From a virus, in the IMG/VR virus record IMGVR_UViG_3300033149_002557, positions 1-42,653 of that record: DNA of 42,653 nt. One strand, written 5' to 3'. This document shows, piece after piece, positions 27,059-39,910 of this stretch; the stretch's first letter is position 1; every line of letters starts with the position of its first letter. The notes under the pieces were generated by a model. The model was not told the DNA's origin, searched no databases, and saw only the letters and a list, made by a program, of their open reading frames with translations. Made by a program: the position numbers and the translations under genes.

Positions 27059-27967
27059 ATGAATATCGAACCACACACATTTACGCACGATGGCGACCGT
27101 GTGCTCGGCTTGCGGCGCTGCAATGCCGACGGCACCTCGTACCGTGGTTTTGCCTGGCCTCGCGAGGGTCCGGTGGTCGCCGACAACTGGGAACCAACGG
27201 ATTGTTGCGGGCATGGTCTGCACTGCTGGCCGTGGGGCTTGGGTCTGGGCGAGGGCTGCGACTTCGATCTGATAGAGGATCGGTGGCAGGTCCTGGAAAT
27301 CGACCCTCGCACGCCGATCGTGGGCAACCTGGAGGGCGGCTGGAAAATGAAATGCCGCGAATGCGTGGTTCGCACGTTCGACAATTTTTCCGATGCCTGG
27401 GATGTAATCGCGGCGGGACAGGCAGCGCTGATTGCATTGATGGCGGCCGGCGGGAAGAACAAACTTGTCGCAACGGAGGTGGGGAGCAAACTTGTCGCAA
27501 CGGGCGCGGACAGCAGACTTGTCGCAGCGGGCGCGGGGAGCACGCTTGTTGCGGTCGGCGCGGACAGCGAACTTGTGGCGGCTGGCACGGACAGCAGACT
27601 TATCGCGACCAGCAAACGGAGCAAGCTGGCCGCGACCGGCCTGGAGTCGTGTTGCGTGGCGGTCGGCGCGGAAAGCAAACTTGTGGCGGCGGACGTGGCG
27701 AGCAAACTTGTCGCAGCGGGCGCGGACAGCACGCTTGCCGTGGTCGGCAGGTACAGTAAGCTGACCGCAATCGGCGCGGAGTCGTGTTGCATGGCGGCAG
27801 GCGTGGGGAGCAAGGTGCGAGTCGGTGACGGTGGGGCGTTTTGCCTGCGCGGCAACGACCCCGCCGGCAACCCGCGACTTGTGGTGGGCCACGTCGGCGA
27901 AAACAGCATCGTGGCCAATACGTGGTACGAACTCGACGAGAACCTGCAAATCGTTCCGGTAGAATAG
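27059..27967 (+). CDS. Protein with decapeptide beta-solenoid repeats
   Basis: 302-residue protein. The N-terminal domain (GLRRCNADGTSYRGFAWPREGPVVADNWEP...CCGHGLHCWPWGLGLG) is a compact Cys/Gly-rich module, followed from about residue 135 to 260 by some twelve degenerate ten-residue repeats of the type SKLVATGADS and SRLVAAGAGS, encoded by roughly 30-bp imperfect DNA repeats. Such repeats form a small parallel beta solenoid. The C-terminus (LVVGHVGENSIVANTWYELDE) closes the fold. It starts 4 bp after the preceding gene. Confidence 0.75.
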   Translation: MNIEPHTFTHDGDRVLGLRRCNADGTSYRGFAWPREGPVVADNWEPTDCCGHGLHCWPWGLGLGEGCDFDLIEDRWQVLEIDPRTPIVGNLEGGWKMKCRECVVRTFDNFSDAWDVIAAGQAALIALMAAGGKNKLVATEVGSKLVATGADSRLVAAGAGSTLVAVGADSELVAAGTDSRLIATSKRSKLAATGLESCCVAVGAESKLVAADVASKLVAAGADSTLAVVGRYSKLTAIGAESCCMAAGVGSKVRVGDGGAFCLRGNDPAGNPRLVVGHVGENSIVANTWYELDENLQIVPVE

Positions 27968-29001: not shown

Positions 29002-30207
29002 ATGGCGGGCCAAACAACGGAAACGGCGGGAGCGCAACCGCAAGTTACTACTCAAGAACAGGCGGCGGCGCTATTGGAGGTAGTGCTCGAACAGCACCCC
29101 GAAGAGCGCGGTCGCGTGGTGCGCGATGCGCTGCAACGCCAGGAGCGGATCGACCAGATCGAAGAACTGCTGCCGGATCAAATGAAGGGACAGGCGCCGC
29201 GACTGGTCAAGCGCGCCATGCTCACGTTTGCGCGGTCGGAAAAATTGATGCGGTGTACGCCGGCGTCGTTTATCCGCTGCGTGCTGGAGGCGGCCGAGTT
29301 GGGTTTGGCCATCGACGACCGGCTCGGCTACGCCATTCCATATAACAATAAATACAAGGTAGGGAACCAGACCAAGTGGCGGTTGGAAGCGCAGTTCCAG
29401 CCCGACTACAAGGGGCTGATTGCCATCGCTCGCCGCACACAACAGATCAAAGACATATATGGCGACGTGGTGTGCGAAAACGATGAGTGGAATCACGGGC
29501 GAAGTGGCTCGCAATGCCGGCTGGAACACGCGAAGCCGATCGACCGCGAGCGGGGCAAGGTGGTTGGCGCCTACGCCGTCGTGACGTTCCTGGATGGGAG
29601 TTGGCGCGACGAGGTGATGACCCTATCACAACTCGACCACGTGCGAAAAAAGTCGAAGGCCAAAGACAACGGGCCGTGGGTAACGGATACCGAACAAATG
29701 CAGATCAAGACGGTCATCAAGCGCTGCCTGAAACTGTATTGCGACGATCCCGGATTGATTCGGGCTATTGAATTCGACGACCGGGAATACGAGGACGCCG
29801 ACGGCGAGATTCACACTATTCGCAAGAAGGCCCGCGTCTCGCCGTTGAATGATACGATCGGCGCCAAGACGCCGGAGCCGATGGCGGAACCGACACCAAC
29901 CACCGACGCGACGGAACCCGAGCCCGAACCCGAACCCGAACCCGAGCCCGAACCCGAACCCGAACCCGAGCCCGAACCTGAACCTGAACCTGAACCCCGA
30001 GACAAGCACGCGACCAAAATGTTCCGGGAACTTCGCAAGCAACTTGCCACGGCGGATTCGGTAAGCAAGGTGTTGGAAATCGAGACGGAGTTCCTGGGTA
30101 TCAAGTGGACGCCTTCGCCGGCCGAGTCGGATGAAATCCGCAACATTTGCGACCAGGCCCGAACGGGAATCCGCGACACCCGGAGCACAAATTCCAAACC
30201 GTTTTGA
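29002..30207 (+). CDS. RecT-family ssDNA-annealing protein
   Basis: 401-residue RecT-type recombinase. Family segments: CTPASFIRCVLEAAELGLAIDDRLGYAIPYNN, LEAQFQPDYKGLIAIARRT, and GAYAVVTFLDGSWRDEVMTLSQLDHVRKKSKAKDNGPWVTDTEQMQIKTVIKRCLK. An insert of 14 Glu-Pro repeats (DNA 29914-29997, hexamer GAACCC/GAGCCC) separates this core from a C-terminal domain, which could bind single-strand DNA-binding protein or the host replication machinery. ATG 29002 lies after GGAGG; the TTG at 28996 is unlikely. Confidence 0.9.
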   Translation: MAGQTTETAGAQPQVTTQEQAAALLEVVLEQHPEERGRVVRDALQRQERIDQIEELLPDQMKGQAPRLVKRAMLTFARSEKLMRCTPASFIRCVLEAAELGLAIDDRLGYAIPYNNKYKVGNQTKWRLEAQFQPDYKGLIAIARRTQQIKDIYGDVVCENDEWNHGRSGSQCRLEHAKPIDRERGKVVGAYAVVTFLDGSWRDEVMTLSQLDHVRKKSKAKDNGPWVTDTEQMQIKTVIKRCLKLYCDDPGLIRAIEFDDREYEDADGEIHTIRKKARVSPLNDTIGAKTPEPMAEPTPTTDATEPEPEPEPEPEPEPEPEPEPEPEPEPEPRDKHATKMFRELRKQLATADSVSKVLEIETEFLGIKWTPSPAESDEIRNICDQARTGIRDTRSTNSKPF

Positions 30208-30254: not shown

Positions 30255-31085
30255 ATGGCCGGCGACTGGATTCCCGTCAGACACGACCTCGAAGAAGAGC
30301 CGGAGGTCGTGCAAATCGTGTCCGCAATTTGTCCGCAGAGTGTCCGCAATTTGTCCGCGCGTATGCGCAACGTGACGTTAGTTGTCGGCGCATTGCAGCG
30401 CACGTGGCGCCTTTTCGACATGCTGACGGATGACGGAAAACTTGTCGGTTACACCGCCGAATGGCTTGATGCGCATGTCGGGATCGAAAACTGGTCACAC
30501 AACCTCCAGCAGGTCGGCTGGTTGGAAGTCGGCGCGCAAAGCCTTGTCATGCCACGATTTACGACGTGGCTTGGCCAGTCCGCCAAGCGCCGGCTGAAGG
30601 ATTCCCAGCGAAAAAAAGCTGTCCGCAATTTGTCCACGGAAAGTGTGCGCAATGCGCGCACCTCTGTCCGCAATTTTGCGGACAAAAAGCGGACTACAGA
30701 ACAGAAGAGAACAGAACAGAACAGAACAAAGAAGACTTCGTCTTCTCGTCACAGAAAATTCTCGGATGCTGATTTTGCAACTGCTGCCTGGATGCACGAG
30801 CAAAATCTGATTCTGCAACCGGGGCGCAAGAAACCCAACCTGGACACATGGGCCAACGACGTGCGGTTGATGCGAGAACGCGACGGCCACGCGGATGCCG
30901 AGATTCGCGGCTTGTACCAGTGGTGTCATAACGACCCATTCTGGCGACTCAATATCTTGTCCCCCGCCAAGCTGCGCCAGAAATGGGATGACCTTCAGTT
31001 ACGGAAAGACCAACCCCATGACAAAAAGCAAGACGAGCCCCGTGCTCGTGCCTACGATCCCAACAAGCCAGTCAGACCTATCTGA
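30255..31085 (+). CDS. Replication initiator, gpO-like
   Basis: 276-residue basic protein in the place of a phage replication initiator, before a DnaC-like loader. The N-terminus has a winged-helix-like segment (LVVGALQRTWRLFDMLTDDGKLVGYTAEWLDAHVGI). A hydrophilic linker (DKKRTTEQKRTEQNRTKKTSSSR) and a C-terminal domain (DADFATAAWMHEQNLIL...LYQWCHNDPFWRLNILSPAKLRQKWDDL) follow; the latter is like DnaT/primosome-interacting tails. The gene contains iterons (30319-30684), as lambda O contains ori. Confidence 0.8.
   Translation: MAGDWIPVRHDLEEEPEVVQIVSAICPQSVRNLSARMRNVTLVVGALQRTWRLFDMLTDDGKLVGYTAEWLDAHVGIENWSHNLQQVGWLEVGAQSLVMPRFTTWLGQSAKRRLKDSQRKKAVRNLSTESVRNARTSVRNFADKKRTTEQKRTEQNRTKKTSSSRHRKFSDADFATAAWMHEQNLILQPGRKKPNLDTWANDVRLMRERDGHADAEIRGLYQWCHNDPFWRLNILSPAKLRQKWDDLQLRKDQPHDKKQDEPRARAYDPNKPVRPI
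30319..30684 (+). other. ori: Putative phage replication origin with iterons
   Basis: Inside the initiator gene TGTCCGCAATTTGTCCGC occurs at 30319-30336 and 30341-30358, and with one change at 30620-30637. A related perfect inverted repeat TGTCCGCAA-TT-TTGCGGACA lies at 30665-30684. A purine-rich run of AGAAC units (from about 30699) follows. This matches the lambdoid layout of iterons inside the initiator gene followed by an unwinding region. Confidence 0.75.
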
Positions 31086-32877: not shown

Positions 32878-33540
32878 ATGCCAACGAAAGCGAAGGCTAA
32901 AAACGCAACCGCGCCACGGGGCGCAGCGCTGACAATCGATCCGCCCAACTTCCAGATTGCGGAGTTCCGGATTCGCGGCGTGACGGCTTACGTGCAAAAC
33001 AAGTTCTCGACGAAGGCCCGCGAGACGATAAAAAAGACGCAAGAGGCCGGGCAAAGCGGGCGCAAAGGCAAGGCTCGGGAGCCGAAGGATTTCAAGGCCG
33101 CCTATAAAAATGCGATGCACGTGTCGAGCGCGGGTTGGCACGGCATCCCCGCCCCGGCATTTCGCAATGCCATGATCTCCGCTTGTCGGATGACCGGCTA
33201 CGCCATGACGCGCGCCAAGCTGAGCGTATTCGTGATCGCGGATGGGTTTGACAAGGACGATTCAACGCCGCTGGTAAAAATCACGAAAGGCAAGCCGGAG
33301 TATTCCGAGTTGCCGACCCGGAATGCAACGGGAGTCTGTGACCTGCGGCCGCGACCAATGTGGCAGCCGGGATGGGAAGCGATGGTGCGCGTCCGATATG
33401 ATGCCGACCAGTTTACGCTGAATGACGTGGCCAACCTCGTGGTTCGGGCGGGGATGCAGGTCGGCATCGGCGAAGGGCGAGCCGATTCCCGGGAAAGTAA
33501 CGGCATCGGCTGGGGAGAGTTCGAGGTGTTGAATAAGTAA
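32878..33540 (+). CDS. Conserved phage protein of the recombination block
   Basis: 220-residue protein. The C-terminal LVVRAGMQVGIGEGRADSRESNGIGWGEFEV is a glycine-rich signature also seen in phage proteins near recombination genes, and an N-terminal strand EFRIRGVTAYVQNKFSTKARE precedes it. The fold may be a two-domain alpha/beta protein. Function is unknown. TATGGAGGAAGAAA is the RBS. The first GGCNN array follows the stop. Confidence 0.7.
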   Translation: MPTKAKAKNATAPRGAALTIDPPNFQIAEFRIRGVTAYVQNKFSTKARETIKKTQEAGQSGRKGKAREPKDFKAAYKNAMHVSSAGWHGIPAPAFRNAMISACRMTGYAMTRAKLSVFVIADGFDKDDSTPLVKITKGKPEYSELPTRNATGVCDLRPRPMWQPGWEAMVRVRYDADQFTLNDVANLVVRAGMQVGIGEGRADSRESNGIGWGEFEVLNK

Positions 33541-33551
33541 ACGCCCTATAT

Positions 33552-33824
33552 GGCAGGGCAAGGCGCGGCAAGGCTTGGCAGGCGAGGCGCGGCGAGGCCT
33601 GGCGGGGCAAGGCCTGGCAAGGCGCGGCAGGCGCGGCAGGCGAGGCTTGGCCAGGCCGGGCATGGCCGGGCGGGGTGAGGCACGGCTGTCATGGCAAGGC
33701 GAGGCTTGGCCTGGCGAGGCTCGGCGCGGCGAGGCATGGCGTGGCAGGCAAGGCTTGGCGAGGCTTGGCCAGGCCGGGCGAGGCCTGGCGAGGCCAGGCG
33801 CGGCAAGGCACGGCGGGCACGGTG
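33552..33824 (+). repeat. GGCNN pentanucleotide array 1
   Basis: About 55 units of GGC plus two variable bases, with a dominant 5-bp period (occasionally 4 bp), between the stop at 33540 and the gene at 33855. The variable dinucleotides (AA, GC, TT, GA, CT, CG and others) do not follow an obvious order. Long open frames in it are byproducts of the 5-bp period. A landmark GGCACGGCTGTC is shared with array 2. Confidence 0.95.
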
Positions 33825-33854
33825 TAATAAGTTTTTACCCTAACGAAAGGATTT

Positions 33855-34391
33855 ATGATGTACGGAACACTCACCAAACAGCAGCAAGCGGAACTGGCTG
33901 CATTGAAGAAGAAACGCAAGACGATTCTGCCAGCGGAGGTAGTTGACTTCGCCCGCGATCCAAACACCGCATTGCACTCCCGGTTCACCTGGGAGGACAG
34001 TGAGGCCGCCGAGAAGTGGCGGCTACATGAAGCGCGAAACATATTGCGCGTGGCCGTGTTCGTGCCCAAGGGCAGCACGAAGCCAATACGCGCGTACGTG
34101 TCGCTGCGCGACGATCGTTCGGCGGCGGGCGGTTATCGATCCGTGGTGGACGTGCTGTCTGACGCGGAATTGCGCGACAAGATGTTGCGGGAAGCGCTGG
34201 AAGAGTTTCGCCTCTTTCAGCAGAAATATCGGGTGCTGTCGGAACTGGCGCCGCTATTCGAGGCGGCGGCTCGCGTGCGAAAGCAAAAGGCCCGGGCAAA
34301 GGCCAGTGATAACGGGCACCGGCGGCGAGCCGGAAACCTGCGAGGGCGAAAACCCGCGAAGACACGAGCAAAGGCAACGGTAAACGCCTAG
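33855..34391 (+). CDS. Conserved hypothetical protein bracketed by arrays
   Basis: 178-residue protein. Family-like segments: EVVDFARDPNTALHSRFTWEDSEAAEKWRLHEARNILRVAVFVPKG and YRSVVDVLSDAELRDKMLREALEEF, which resemble a conserved phage protein of unknown function. The C-terminus is very basic (KQKARAKASDNGHRRRAGNLRGRKPAKTRAKATV) and probably binds nucleic acid. AAAGGATTTATG is the RBS. It is bracketed by the two GGCNN arrays. Confidence 0.75.
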   Translation: MMYGTLTKQQQAELAALKKKRKTILPAEVVDFARDPNTALHSRFTWEDSEAAEKWRLHEARNILRVAVFVPKGSTKPIRAYVSLRDDRSAAGGYRSVVDVLSDAELRDKMLREALEEFRLFQQKYRVLSELAPLFEAAARVRKQKARAKASDNGHRRRAGNLRGRKPAKTRAKATVNA

Positions 34392-34408
34392 CACTTGCTT
34401 TTGCTCAC

Positions 34409-34587
34409 GGCAGGCACGGCGAGGCTAGGCCAGGCAAGGCGGGGCTTGGCTCGGCCGGGCAAGGCTTGGCAGGCGAGGCGAGGCGGGGCATGGCATGGCA
34501 CGGCTGGGCTTGGCGTGGACGGCACGGCTGTCGTGGTTAGGCACGGCTGGGCGTGGCAAGGCACGGCGAGGCAAGGTGTGGTACGGA
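34409..34587 (+). repeat. GGCNN pentanucleotide array 2
   Basis: About 33 GGCNN units in the same orientation as array 1, between the genes at 34391 and 34624. It shares the landmark GGCACGGCTGTC with array 1. Some units are degenerate (GGTTA, GGAC). Confidence 0.95.
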
Positions 34588-34623: not shown

Positions 34624-35034
34624 ATGACCAAAACAAAAACCCCAGCGGCGAAATTCACGGCCCCGGTCGAGTTCGGCAACGTGTCGATCGGCGACGGGAC
34701 CGTCGGCCTGTCGATCAAAATCGACCGCACACACCTCGATCCGCAGCAAGCGGACGACCTGCTGTGCGGCCGGCGGCTTCAGTCCCGGTTAGCGGTGGGA
34801 AAGCCGGGCGATGACGTCGACCAGACGTACTTGTTTGACGACGCCGAACACAAGCTGACGGCAAGTTTCGACGTCAAGGGATTTGCCGTCAAGCCAAAGC
34901 ATATTCGAGCGACCTTCTGCGGGGCACTGGCCGACCTGGAGATCGAGGAGTTGGGTCATTTCGCCAAACGGGCCGGCCGGTTGTTGATTGATGCCGTTAG
35001 TGAATTGGAGGACACTAGTGACGACAGGATTTGA
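34624..35034 (+). CDS. Hypothetical protein, phage early block
   Basis: 136-residue acidic protein, preceded by ACCCTAA (34602-34608) and TATGGAGAACAAAG. Beta-rich N-terminus (FGNVSIGDGTVGLSIKIDRTHLD), then ADDLLCGRRLQSRLAVGKPGDD and an alpha-helical C-terminus. Similar proteins occur next to recombination genes in other phages, without known function. Confidence 0.65.
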   Translation: MTKTKTPAAKFTAPVEFGNVSIGDGTVGLSIKIDRTHLDPQQADDLLCGRRLQSRLAVGKPGDDVDQTYLFDDAEHKLTASFDVKGFAVKPKHIRATFCGALADLEIEELGHFAKRAGRLLIDAVSELEDTSDDRI

Positions 35035-35094
35035 GAATAAGGGAATACCCTAACATCGAAAAGACAGGAGAATCACAGCGGAAAGGGTAAACGC

Positions 35095-35421
35095 ATGACC
35101 TTTGACGATTACCAGACCATCGCCGTGGCGACAGCCGTATACCCGACCGACATCCGCGTCCTCTACCCGGCACTCGGCCTTGCCGGCGAGGCCGGCGAGG
35201 TTGCCAACAAGGTCAAGAAGATTTACCGCGACGATGGTGGCCAAGTGACCGATGATCGGCGGACACAGATCGCTCACGAACTTGGCGGCGTGCTCTGGTA
35301 CGTGGCGGCGGTCTGTGCGGACTTGAACCTCAACATGGGCGACGTGGCCCGCGAGAACGCTACCATCCTCGCATCGCGGCAAGAACGTGGCACGCTCCAC
35401 GGCGACGGAGACGAACGATGA
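35095..35421 (+). CDS. MazG-like protein with altered active site
   Basis: 108-residue MazG/nucleotide pyrophosphohydrolase-like protein. GLAGEAGEVANKVKK fits the first ExxE of the family, but the second motif reads HELGGVLWY where ELGD is expected, so the metal-binding Asp is replaced by Gly. It may be inactive or use another residue. It has an ATGA overlap with the methyltransferase gene and AGGGTAAACGC upstream. Confidence 0.7.
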   Translation: MTFDDYQTIAVATAVYPTDIRVLYPALGLAGEAGEVANKVKKIYRDDGGQVTDDRRTQIAHELGGVLWYVAAVCADLNLNMGDVARENATILASRQERGTLHGDGDER

Positions 35422-36194
35422 GTGACCCGCCCCGATGCTATCGATGCGGCAAACACCCCTGTGAGTGTCCTGACGATATTACGCTGTACTGGGGTGACGC
35501 GCTGAAGGTACTGCCCGCGCTTGATGAAGGGGCGTGTATCTTTGCCGACCCGCCGGACAACATCGGCCTCGGCTACAATGAGTTCAAGGACAATCAGCCG
35601 GACGATGCCTACGTGGCGTGGCTGGGTGACTGCTTGCGGTTGTTCATTCGGAAGGCCGGCATCGTGTGGGCCTCGTACAACGCGCGGTGGAGCTTCGCGG
35701 TGGGCATGATCGTTCACGATCTGCTCGGCGAGCACAAATGGCTCGAAGCGAAACCCTGCGTGCAGACGTTTACCTTCGGACAGCATCGACACAACGACTT
35801 GGGCAATAACCACCGGCCCCTTCTTCGGCTCAAACGCGACGACGCACGACTCTATCCCGATGCCATCCGCGTCCCGTCCTGGCGACAGGAGCACGGCGAC
35901 AAACGAGCAGACCCGCGCGGCCGGGTGCCGGGGGACGTGTTTGAGTTCCCGCGCGTAACGGGCAACGCCAGGCAGCGCCGGGCCTGGCACCCGACGCAAC
36001 TTCACGAAGAACTTGTCGAGCGGTGCGTGAAGCTGAGCGCTCGGAAGGGCGAGGTGGTCATTGATCCGTTCGCCGGCTCCGGCACGACGCTACGGGTGTG
36101 CAAGCGGCTCGGACGACCTTGCACGGGAATCGAGATCGATCGCGGCTACTGCGAACACATTGCCGACGAGCTTGCGGAGCGGACTTTGTTTTGA
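35418..36194 (+). CDS. DNA methyltransferase, N4/N6 type
   Basis: 258-residue methyltransferase. N-terminal CYRCGKHPCEC suggests a small zinc site. Catalytic motif IV is FADPPDNIGLGYNEF (DPPD instead of DPPY). The SAM-binding motif I, IDPFAGSGTTLRVC, lies near the C-terminus, so the order is of the beta class. Probable base methylation of phage DNA, possibly against host restriction. It is coupled to the MazG-like gene and followed by small zinc-protein genes. Confidence 0.87.
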   Translation: MSDPPRCYRCGKHPCECPDDITLYWGDALKVLPALDEGACIFADPPDNIGLGYNEFKDNQPDDAYVAWLGDCLRLFIRKAGIVWASYNARWSFAVGMIVHDLLGEHKWLEAKPCVQTFTFGQHRHNDLGNNHRPLLRLKRDDARLYPDAIRVPSWRQEHGDKRADPRGRVPGDVFEFPRVTGNARQRRAWHPTQLHEELVERCVKLSARKGEVVIDPFAGSGTTLRVCKRLGRPCTGIEIDRGYCEHIADELAERTLF

Positions 36195-39067: not shown

Positions 39068-39910
39068 GTGTACCATAAAGACAACATCGGTTGGGGCCTG
39101 GTCGTGGCGGGCGTCGCCGGGATCGTCCTGTCGTTGCTGACTGCGATTGTCGGCTGGGGGATCGAGATCAGCCCGCCGCCGAAGGACGTCGAGGTCGGCG
39201 AGGACATTGAACTTCGGATCGCGGGCATCAAGATCAGCCCGCCGCCGGAGGACGTGGAAGTCGGCGAGGACATCGAACTTCGGATTACGGGTATCGACTA
39301 CAAGGAAATTCAGGGCGCCAAGCTGATCTATTACCCGCGCGAGAAAGTCAAGGTCCGCGACACGCTGTCCTGGCAACTCGTGCCGCGAATCGACTTTCGG
39401 GCCATGCGAGCGGGCAGCTATTTCGTCGCCGTGGCGGCTGAGCAGGACGGTAAGCTAGTGTACGACGAGGTGGTCGTGGTCGTGGGAGGCGGCCCGGGCC
39501 CGGACCCTCCCGATCCGACGCCCGAGCCCGACCCACCCTTGCCGCTCCCCGGCGATTTGTGGGCGGTGACGATCTACGAGACTGGCCAACGAACAGGCCC
39601 GAGCGGCGAGAGGTTGAAACTGTTACATCTGTACCTCGACAAGGCGGAGGCGGCTGGCGAGATTCAGGCCAGGTACTTAGATCAAGACACCCAAGACGCA
39701 ACTACGGGCAATACCCCCGAGTGGTTTCGCCCTGTGCTCCAGGCGGTACGTGACGGCCAGGTCAAGCTACCGGCGGTAGTTATCGCCGTGCGCAATCCGG
39801 ATACTGGTATCTTTACCCCCGTTGACACAACTCACCTGGACAACGCGGCGGTGGTCATGCAGTGGATCAAGACACACATCGACGCACGAAAGGGGAGGCG
39901 ACGAAGATGA
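39068..39910 (+). CDS. Membrane-anchored protein with 66-bp tandem repeat
   Basis: 280-residue protein starting at GTG 39068. An N-terminal membrane anchor (GWGLVVAGVAGIVLSLLTAIVGWGI) is followed by two 22-residue tandem repeats (ISPPPKDVEVGEDIELRI type; DNA about 39169-39300), a beta domain, a Pro-rich linker (GPGPDPPDPTPEPDPPLPL) and a C-terminal domain. Outside the cell it could act in adsorption or lysis. It is next to the papain-like protease gene (ATGA overlap). RBS near the GTG is weak. Confidence 0.65.
   Translation: MYHKDNIGWGLVVAGVAGIVLSLLTAIVGWGIEISPPPKDVEVGEDIELRIAGIKISPPPEDVEVGEDIELRITGIDYKEIQGAKLIYYPREKVKVRDTLSWQLVPRIDFRAMRAGSYFVAVAAEQDGKLVYDEVVVVVGGGPGPDPPDPTPEPDPPLPLPGDLWAVTIYETGQRTGPSGERLKLLHLYLDKAEAAGEIQARYLDQDTQDATTGNTPEWFRPVLQAVRDGQVKLPAVVIAVRNPDTGIFTPVDTTHLDNAAVVMQWIKTHIDARKGRRRR

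What the first reader, a model, noticed from the sequence alone, without database searches (positions are those of the whole stretch)
33552..34587. Two GGCNN pentanucleotide arrays bracketing one gene
A run of about 55 and a run of about 33 GGCNN units, both in the same orientation, flank the 178-residue gene at 33855-34391. A shared landmark (GGCACGGCTGTC) shows they are related. The two variable bases are diverse while GGC is constant, which suggests selection or a replication-slippage/templating process acting on a 5-bp unit, not on coding frames. Binding sites for a repeat-recognising protein, a recombination tract or a structured RNA are possible roles.
Basis: seen in the sequence. Interest (0 to 1): 0.8.

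Follow-up and report, generated by a model that had tools for sequence, protein, structure and literature searches.

The report
Phage VIPR guide-RNA arrays
The repeats are most likely guide-RNA arrays of a VIPR system, a recently described CRISPR-like weapon that phages carry against rival phages, here in an uncultivated phage.

Summary
Two same-strand arrays of GGCNN units lie at 33552-33823 (53 GGC) and 34409-34582 (31 GGC); the reversed control pattern gives none. The decisive clue is the gene just upstream (32878-33540). Its family was detected in 82 of those 110 loci and in 0 of 51 viral loci fetched without asking for arrays. The family profile matches the solved SUSP1 Vipr protein (E 5.7e-43), and the model folds like the CRISPR protein Csm3 (Z 12). 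This is a VIPR system (PMC13142463): GGY/NN guide RNAs whose NN pairs read DNA with one skipped base. As that rule predicts, the NN pairs here resemble codon positions 1-2; 4-nt GGCA units cut the arrays into guide-sized blocks. No natural target was found (six scans, five of seven guides). Verdict: new member of a known kind, not the SUSP1 type; its clade shares a candidate accessory gene (33855-34391) and GGCA punctuation.

The parts
32878..33540 (+). vipr gene (RAMP-family guide-RNA-binding protein, 220 aa)
   Evidence: family profile hits SUSP1 Vipr 36pp_D, E 5.7e-43; same profile finds the SUSP1 gene in KT454805, E 1.3e-46; AlphaFold2 model pLDDT 92.4 matches Csm3, Z 12.0; phrog_4652 E 1.7e-8
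33552..33823 (+). vrRNA array 1 (53 GGC), starts 11 nt after the vipr stop codon
33552..33576 (+). block a, 5 units, then GGCA 33577-33580
33581..33625 (+). guide block b, 9 units, then GGCA 33626-33629, one unit, GGCA 33635-33638
   Evidence: sense-codon score +5.9
33639..33683 (+). guide block d, 9 units, then separator GGCTGTCAT 33684-33692
   Evidence: score +3.5
33693..33742 (+). guide block e, 10 units, then GGCA 33743-33746
   Evidence: score +3.8
33747..33811 (+). guide block f, 13 units
   Evidence: score +6.2
33855..34391 (+). candidate vap (VIPR accessory protein), phrog_15946, 178 aa
   Evidence: phrog_15946 E 5.4e-16; beside the Vipr family in 25 of the 82 array loci that have Vipr; model pLDDT 91.1 but no significant PDB fold match
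34409..34582 (+). vrRNA array 2 (31 GGC plus GGT units)
34413..34467 (+). guide block g, 11 units, then GGCA 34468-34471
   Evidence: score +0.9
34472..34516 (+). guide block h, 9 units, then irregular GGAC, GGCAC, GGCTGTCGT up to 34534
   Evidence: score +2.7 over 8 units
34535..34579 (+). guide block i, 9 units (begins with GGT)
   Evidence: score +1.5 over 7 units

Best explanation
A VIPR (Viral Interference Programmable Repeat) locus of a tailed phage: vipr, guide array 1, candidate accessory gene, guide array 2, all on one strand. Shown here: the arrays, the Vipr homology and RAMP fold, the tight linkage of arrays and Vipr across phages, the strand, the guide-sized punctuation, and codon-like NN pairs. 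Inferred from the SUSP1 work (PMC13142463): the arrays are transcribed and give guide RNAs of about 9-13 units; Vipr coats each unit by its GGY; the exposed NN pairs bind double-stranded DNA with one unpaired base between pairs, so the skipped base falls on the codon wobble position; binding silences genes of a competing phage or prophage. All seven window blocks tested score as sense-strand coding targets. Which rival is targeted is unknown.
For: Profile of the upstream gene family hits SUSP1 Vipr at E 5.7e-43, next best Csm5 at 0.023. Reverse check: the profile picks the SUSP1 gene (ALH47069) at E 1.3e-46, with GGYNN arrays on both sides of it. Model fold: Csm3 chains, Foldseek E 5.0e-6, Z 12.0. 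Vipr found in 82 of 110 array-bearing viral loci, 2 of 10 without arrays, 0 of 51 array-blind viral loci, 5 of 11 array-bearing and 0 of 109 array-free bacterial loci. Of 142 intergenic arrays, 112 have both neighbours on the array strand and 3 both opposite. In 81 loci the NN pairs fit sense codon positions 1-2 best in 44, antisense 1-2 in 18, all other models in 19. Blocks are more strand-coherent than shuffled ones (6 of 3000 reach the observed value), and 4-mer spacings of 8-13 units are 104 of 177 against a shuffled mean of 40.4, maximum 61 of 1000. Isolate phages Brocalys and Ecliptus and the named assembly Cy-LDV1 carry the same gene pair plus arrays.
Against: A single-sequence search with the window protein finds no Vipr, and it is only about 13% identical to SUSP1 Vipr over 172 aligned residues. 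No structured 3' tail was found: array ends fold no better than shuffles (z 0.12 and -0.86). Six scans of viral contigs, for five of the seven guides of 9 units or more, gave 133 stretches with an exact 8-unit core but no convincing full target. 28 of 110 array loci show no Vipr, some of them cut short at the array. Transcription was not tested; no sigma-70-like promoter was seen.
Confidence: 0.92

Rival explanations
1. DNA-level array of binding sites (iterons, operators or a partition site) for a phage protein that recognises GGC every half turn.
For: Long same-orientation arrays of a fixed triplet; arrays flank small genes.
Against: Arrays follow the transcribed strand (112 of 142 against 3), which DNA sites need not do. 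NN pairs are codon-like and block-coherent, which a binding site with free spacers does not explain. The linked protein is a guide-RNA-binding RAMP.
Confidence: 0.03
2. RNA array that Vipr or another ring-forming protein wraps to control the phage's own operon (like the TRAP protein on its triplet repeats; resemblance recalled, no TRAP family search was run).
For: Sense-strand intergenic position, triplet plus 2-nt spacer geometry.
Against: Does not predict codon-phased NN pairs or punctuation every 8-13 units.
Confidence: 0.03
3. Neutral microsatellite made by replication slippage, or an assembly artefact.
For: Partial internal duplications, e.g. the 23-nt GGCGAGGCTTGGCCAGGCCGGGC twice.
Against: Recurs in many unrelated contigs and in isolate phages next to the same gene family; NN stays near maximal entropy.
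Confidence: 0.02

Closest known systems
VIPR of Escherichia phage SUSP1 (type II in PMC13142463; whole main text read)
   Same: RAMP-type Vipr, GGY/NN arrays on the same strand beside it, small adjacent gene, phage-borne
   Different: SUSP1 has four separate vrRNAs of about 100 nt with an invariable 3' tail and vap1; the window has two long continuous arrays cut by GGCA, no detectable tail, and a different accessory family (the B profile does not hit SUSP1)
Cyanophage Cy-LDV1 BK059895 (named record, found here)
   Same: Vipr 58-59% identical, same order vipr-array-B-array, GGCA punctuation
   Different: arrays more broken up and a different genome context (excisionase, Bet recombinase nearby)
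CRISPR Csm3/Cas7 RAMP subunits
   Same: fold (Z 12.0, 151 residues aligned, rmsd 3.6)
   Different: 13% identity in that match; no CRISPR repeat-spacer array or cas operon seen here; guide code is interrupted every 2 bases

Membership tests
VIPR | RAMP-like Vipr protein homologous to the published ones | tested here: met
   profile hit to SUSP1 Vipr 36pp_D E 5.7e-43; reverse check E 1.3e-46; Csm3-like fold. Single-sequence search was negative.
VIPR | alternating GGY/NN repeats in noncoding DNA next to vipr | tested here: met
   array 1 starts 11 nt after the vipr stop; GGC constant, NN 3.3 bits
VIPR | 9-16 repeats per vrRNA | tested here: inconclusive
   continuous arrays of 53 and 31 GGC, split by short units into blocks of 9-13 repeats plus a 5-repeat one; real RNA ends unknown
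VIPR | NN pairs read DNA with a one-base skip at the wobble position | tested here: inconclusive
   NN composition fits codon positions 1-2, but no target was found
VIPR | adjacent accessory gene (vap) | tested here: inconclusive
   candidate at 33855-34391, linked to Vipr across loci; function and DNA binding not shown
VIPR | guide RNA expressed and bound by Vipr | not testable with these tools
   needs RNA sequencing and pull-down
VIPR type II (SUSP1-like) | invariable structured 3' tail after the repeats | tested here: not met
   array ends fold no better than shuffles (z 0.12, -0.86)
VIPR type II (SUSP1-like) | vap1-type accessory gene | tested here: inconclusive
   profile of the window's accessory family does not hit SUSP1; a vap1 profile was not built
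CRISPR-Cas array | long direct repeats separated by unique spacers | tested here: not met
   tandem repeat scan shows 5-nt-based units only; no Rfam CRISPR or other match

The most novel reading that the evidence does not exclude
The window belongs to a VIPR lineage with its own architecture: tail-less continuous arrays in which a one-base-short GGCA unit punctuates guides every 8-13 repeats, paired with the phrog_15946 accessory protein. The short unit could be the mark for guide processing or for Vipr phasing. Whether this equals one of the seven published types (for example the 'staggered arrays') could not be checked, because the supplement was not readable here.
Probability: 0.35. Interest if true: 0.65.

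Novelty: new member of a known kind. Interest (0 to 1): 0.5.

Why it matters
VIPR was first described in a 2026 preprint as an RNA-guided system that may predate CRISPR. This locus adds an uncultivated-phage member far from SUSP1. More usefully, the codon phase of the NN pairs shows up in 81 loci from composition alone, which supports the one-base-skip rule without any target search, and the GGCA punctuation gives a way to read guides from sequence. Array-bearing isolates such as Dokdonella fugitiva and mycobacteriophage Brocalys offer cultured material for tests.

Tried and rejected
Targets. Exact 8-unit cores with one-base skip were scanned in viral contigs: block e 25 stretches, f 14, g 12, b 60, d 8, f (second core) 14. 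Matching beyond the core was 0.37, 0.29, 0.26, 0.14, 0.22 and 0.27, near chance. The best case, block e, reaches 20 of 21 bases in four contigs that share one protein; by my estimate chance alone would give about 0.3 such cases, so it is not claimed. Blocks h and i were not scanned in the collection. No self-target stood out in the window: with a one-base skip the best match was 14 of 18 bases.

An all-against-all search of guides against 1.12 Mb of held viral DNA gave slightly more one-base-skip matches at 16 of 20 (1100 against 891, 869 and 941 for the other skips) but no clear target and no control for codon structure; not used as evidence.

BLAST of array 1 against named phages found nothing, probably because of the low-complexity filter, since named phages do carry such arrays. 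The accessory protein has no Pfam or NCBIfam match at the limits used and no significant fold match; the weak best rows are forkhead domains at E 0.54. Foldseek's top rows do not list Vipr itself; the library stops in April 2026.

The GGCA/accessory association is 22 of 27 loci against 7 of 50. The accessory-bearing loci are one clade (29 of 31 leaves, support 0.98, midpoint root), so these loci are not independent.

The bacterial genome scan also stopped at 120 stretches; only 11 carry degenerate arrays by the criterion, the rest being simple or coding repeats. In one search, 37 of 179 arrays overlap a called ORF by more than half (26 same strand, 11 opposite) and were left out of the strand count.

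Considered and dropped: recombination hot spots, G-quadruplexes, coding repeats (4-nt units break any frame).

Full report
The window is a 42,653-base IMG/VR virus record. Array 1 (33552-33823) has 53 GGC with 45 spacings of 5 and 5 of 4; array 2 (34409-34582) has 31 GGC with 26 spacings of 5. No other strict run exists in the window on either strand, and a 7-unit pattern matches 28 times forward but 0 times reversed. A codon-based gene caller of mine puts no gene in the arrays. Rfam and ARAGORN report nothing in the window.

The pattern is widespread. By a stricter definition 110 of these 120 hold degenerate arrays, 179 in all. Of these, 37 overlap a called ORF by more than half; of the other 142, 112 lie between two genes on the array's strand and 3 between two genes on the opposite strand. 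Many start within 15 nt of the upstream stop codon. So the G-rich strand is the sense strand of an operon.

Clustering proteins near the arrays gave one dominant family. The window gene 32878-33540 belongs to it, with 77 loci counting the window. A profile of 73 members finds the family in 82 of the 110 array loci, 2 of 10 loci without arrays, 0 of 51 viral loci fetched by unrelated patterns, 5 of 11 array-bearing bacterial loci and 0 of 109 array-free ones. The profile was built from these loci, which helps sensitivity but cannot create the zero counts in the controls. A second family, that of 33855-34391, accompanies it in 25 of the 82.

The profile's best match in the PDB is 36pp_D, 'SUSP1 Vipr protein', E 5.7e-43; the next is Csm5 at 0.023. 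The window protein alone finds no Vipr and is about 13% identical to SUSP1 Vipr, so the link is by profile and fold. The AlphaFold2 model (pLDDT 92.4) matches Csm3 and related RAMP chains, Z 12.0. As a positive control the profile finds one gene in SUSP1, E 1.3e-46, with GGYNN arrays on both sides.

The whole main text of PMC13142463 was read; its supplement was not available. It describes VIPR: Vipr, an ancestral RAMP; vrRNAs of 9-16 YNNGG repeats; DNA recognition by the NN pairs with one skipped base, usually at the wobble position; use against competing phages; seven types with varied arrays and accessory genes. Three paper searches for VIPR found no second paper on it.

Two tests of that model were made here. 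First, if guides target genes with a one-base skip, the NN pairs should look like codon positions 1-2. In 81 loci with at least 15 units, sense positions 1-2 fit best in 44, antisense 1-2 in 18, frames 2-3 in 7 and 3-1 in 0, their antisense forms in 5 and 2, whole-locus composition in 5. Against whole-locus composition, sense 1-2 wins in 59 of 81 (p 1.3e-5; loci are not fully independent). In the window (74 units) the log-likelihood per unit is -2.63 for sense 1-2, -2.80 for whole-window composition and -2.96 for antisense 1-2. Within loci, guide blocks are more strand-coherent than shuffled ones (6 of 3000 shuffles reach the observed value), and all seven window blocks tested lean to sense.

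Second, the arrays are longer than one guide, but short units divide them. In the set (191 arrays, 115 loci), 235 of 289 four-base units are GGCA. In the set, 104 of 177 spacings between four-base units are 8-13 units, against a shuffled mean of 40.4 (maximum 61 of 1000). In the window this gives blocks of 9, 9, 10, 13, 11, 9 and 9 units plus one of 5. Some relatives use GGCATCGCA or GGCACCGCA instead (L127, L094, L039).

A tree of 77 Vipr proteins puts all 29 with the 33855-34391 family in one clade of 31 (support 0.98, midpoint root). At least two GGCA units occur in 22 of 27 such loci and 7 of 50 others. The window is therefore not SUSP1-like in array or accessory gene. Its array ends show no structure beyond shuffles, so type II is not claimed.

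Target search failed. Six scans with exact 8-unit cores for five blocks gave 133 stretches, and matching beyond the cores was near chance. This fits a poorly sampled host and rival, but leaves the target unknown. The host is unknown too; Vipr homologues occur in 9 of 294 Planctomycetota genomes.

Noticed in passing
window 30319-30690: Repeated TGTCCGCAATTTGTCCGC-like motifs inside the gene that matches replication initiation O-like proteins (30255-31085), reminiscent of iterons within a replication gene (resemblance to lambda O recalled).
   Followed up: no
window 27443-27731: About eleven 27-base repeats within the ORF at 27059-27967.
   Followed up: no
window 29914-29997: Fourteen 6-base repeats inside the RecT-like gene 29002-30207, a Glu-Pro run.
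   Followed up: no
window 39157-39285: Two 66-base tandem copies, 90% alike, inside the ORF 39068-39910.
   Followed up: no
window 34624-36194: Downstream of array 2: an unknown 136-aa gene, a MazG-like gene and an N6/N4 DNA methyltransferase; their link to the system was not tested.
   Followed up: partly
L071 1950-3536: A 158-kb contig with six arrays in a row, about 250 units and 30 GGCA units, the largest set seen.
   Followed up: no
L304, L305, L306/L310: Bacterial genomes with Vipr genes: Dokdonella fugitiva with two arrays, a Desulfobulbaceae MAG with four, an Alphaproteobacteria MAG with two Vipr genes and an array beside one of them.
   Followed up: partly
L127, L094, L078 array ends: These relatives end their arrays in a similar ACCG...CGGGGTA sequence that could be a hairpin tail; the window lacks it.
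   Followed up: no
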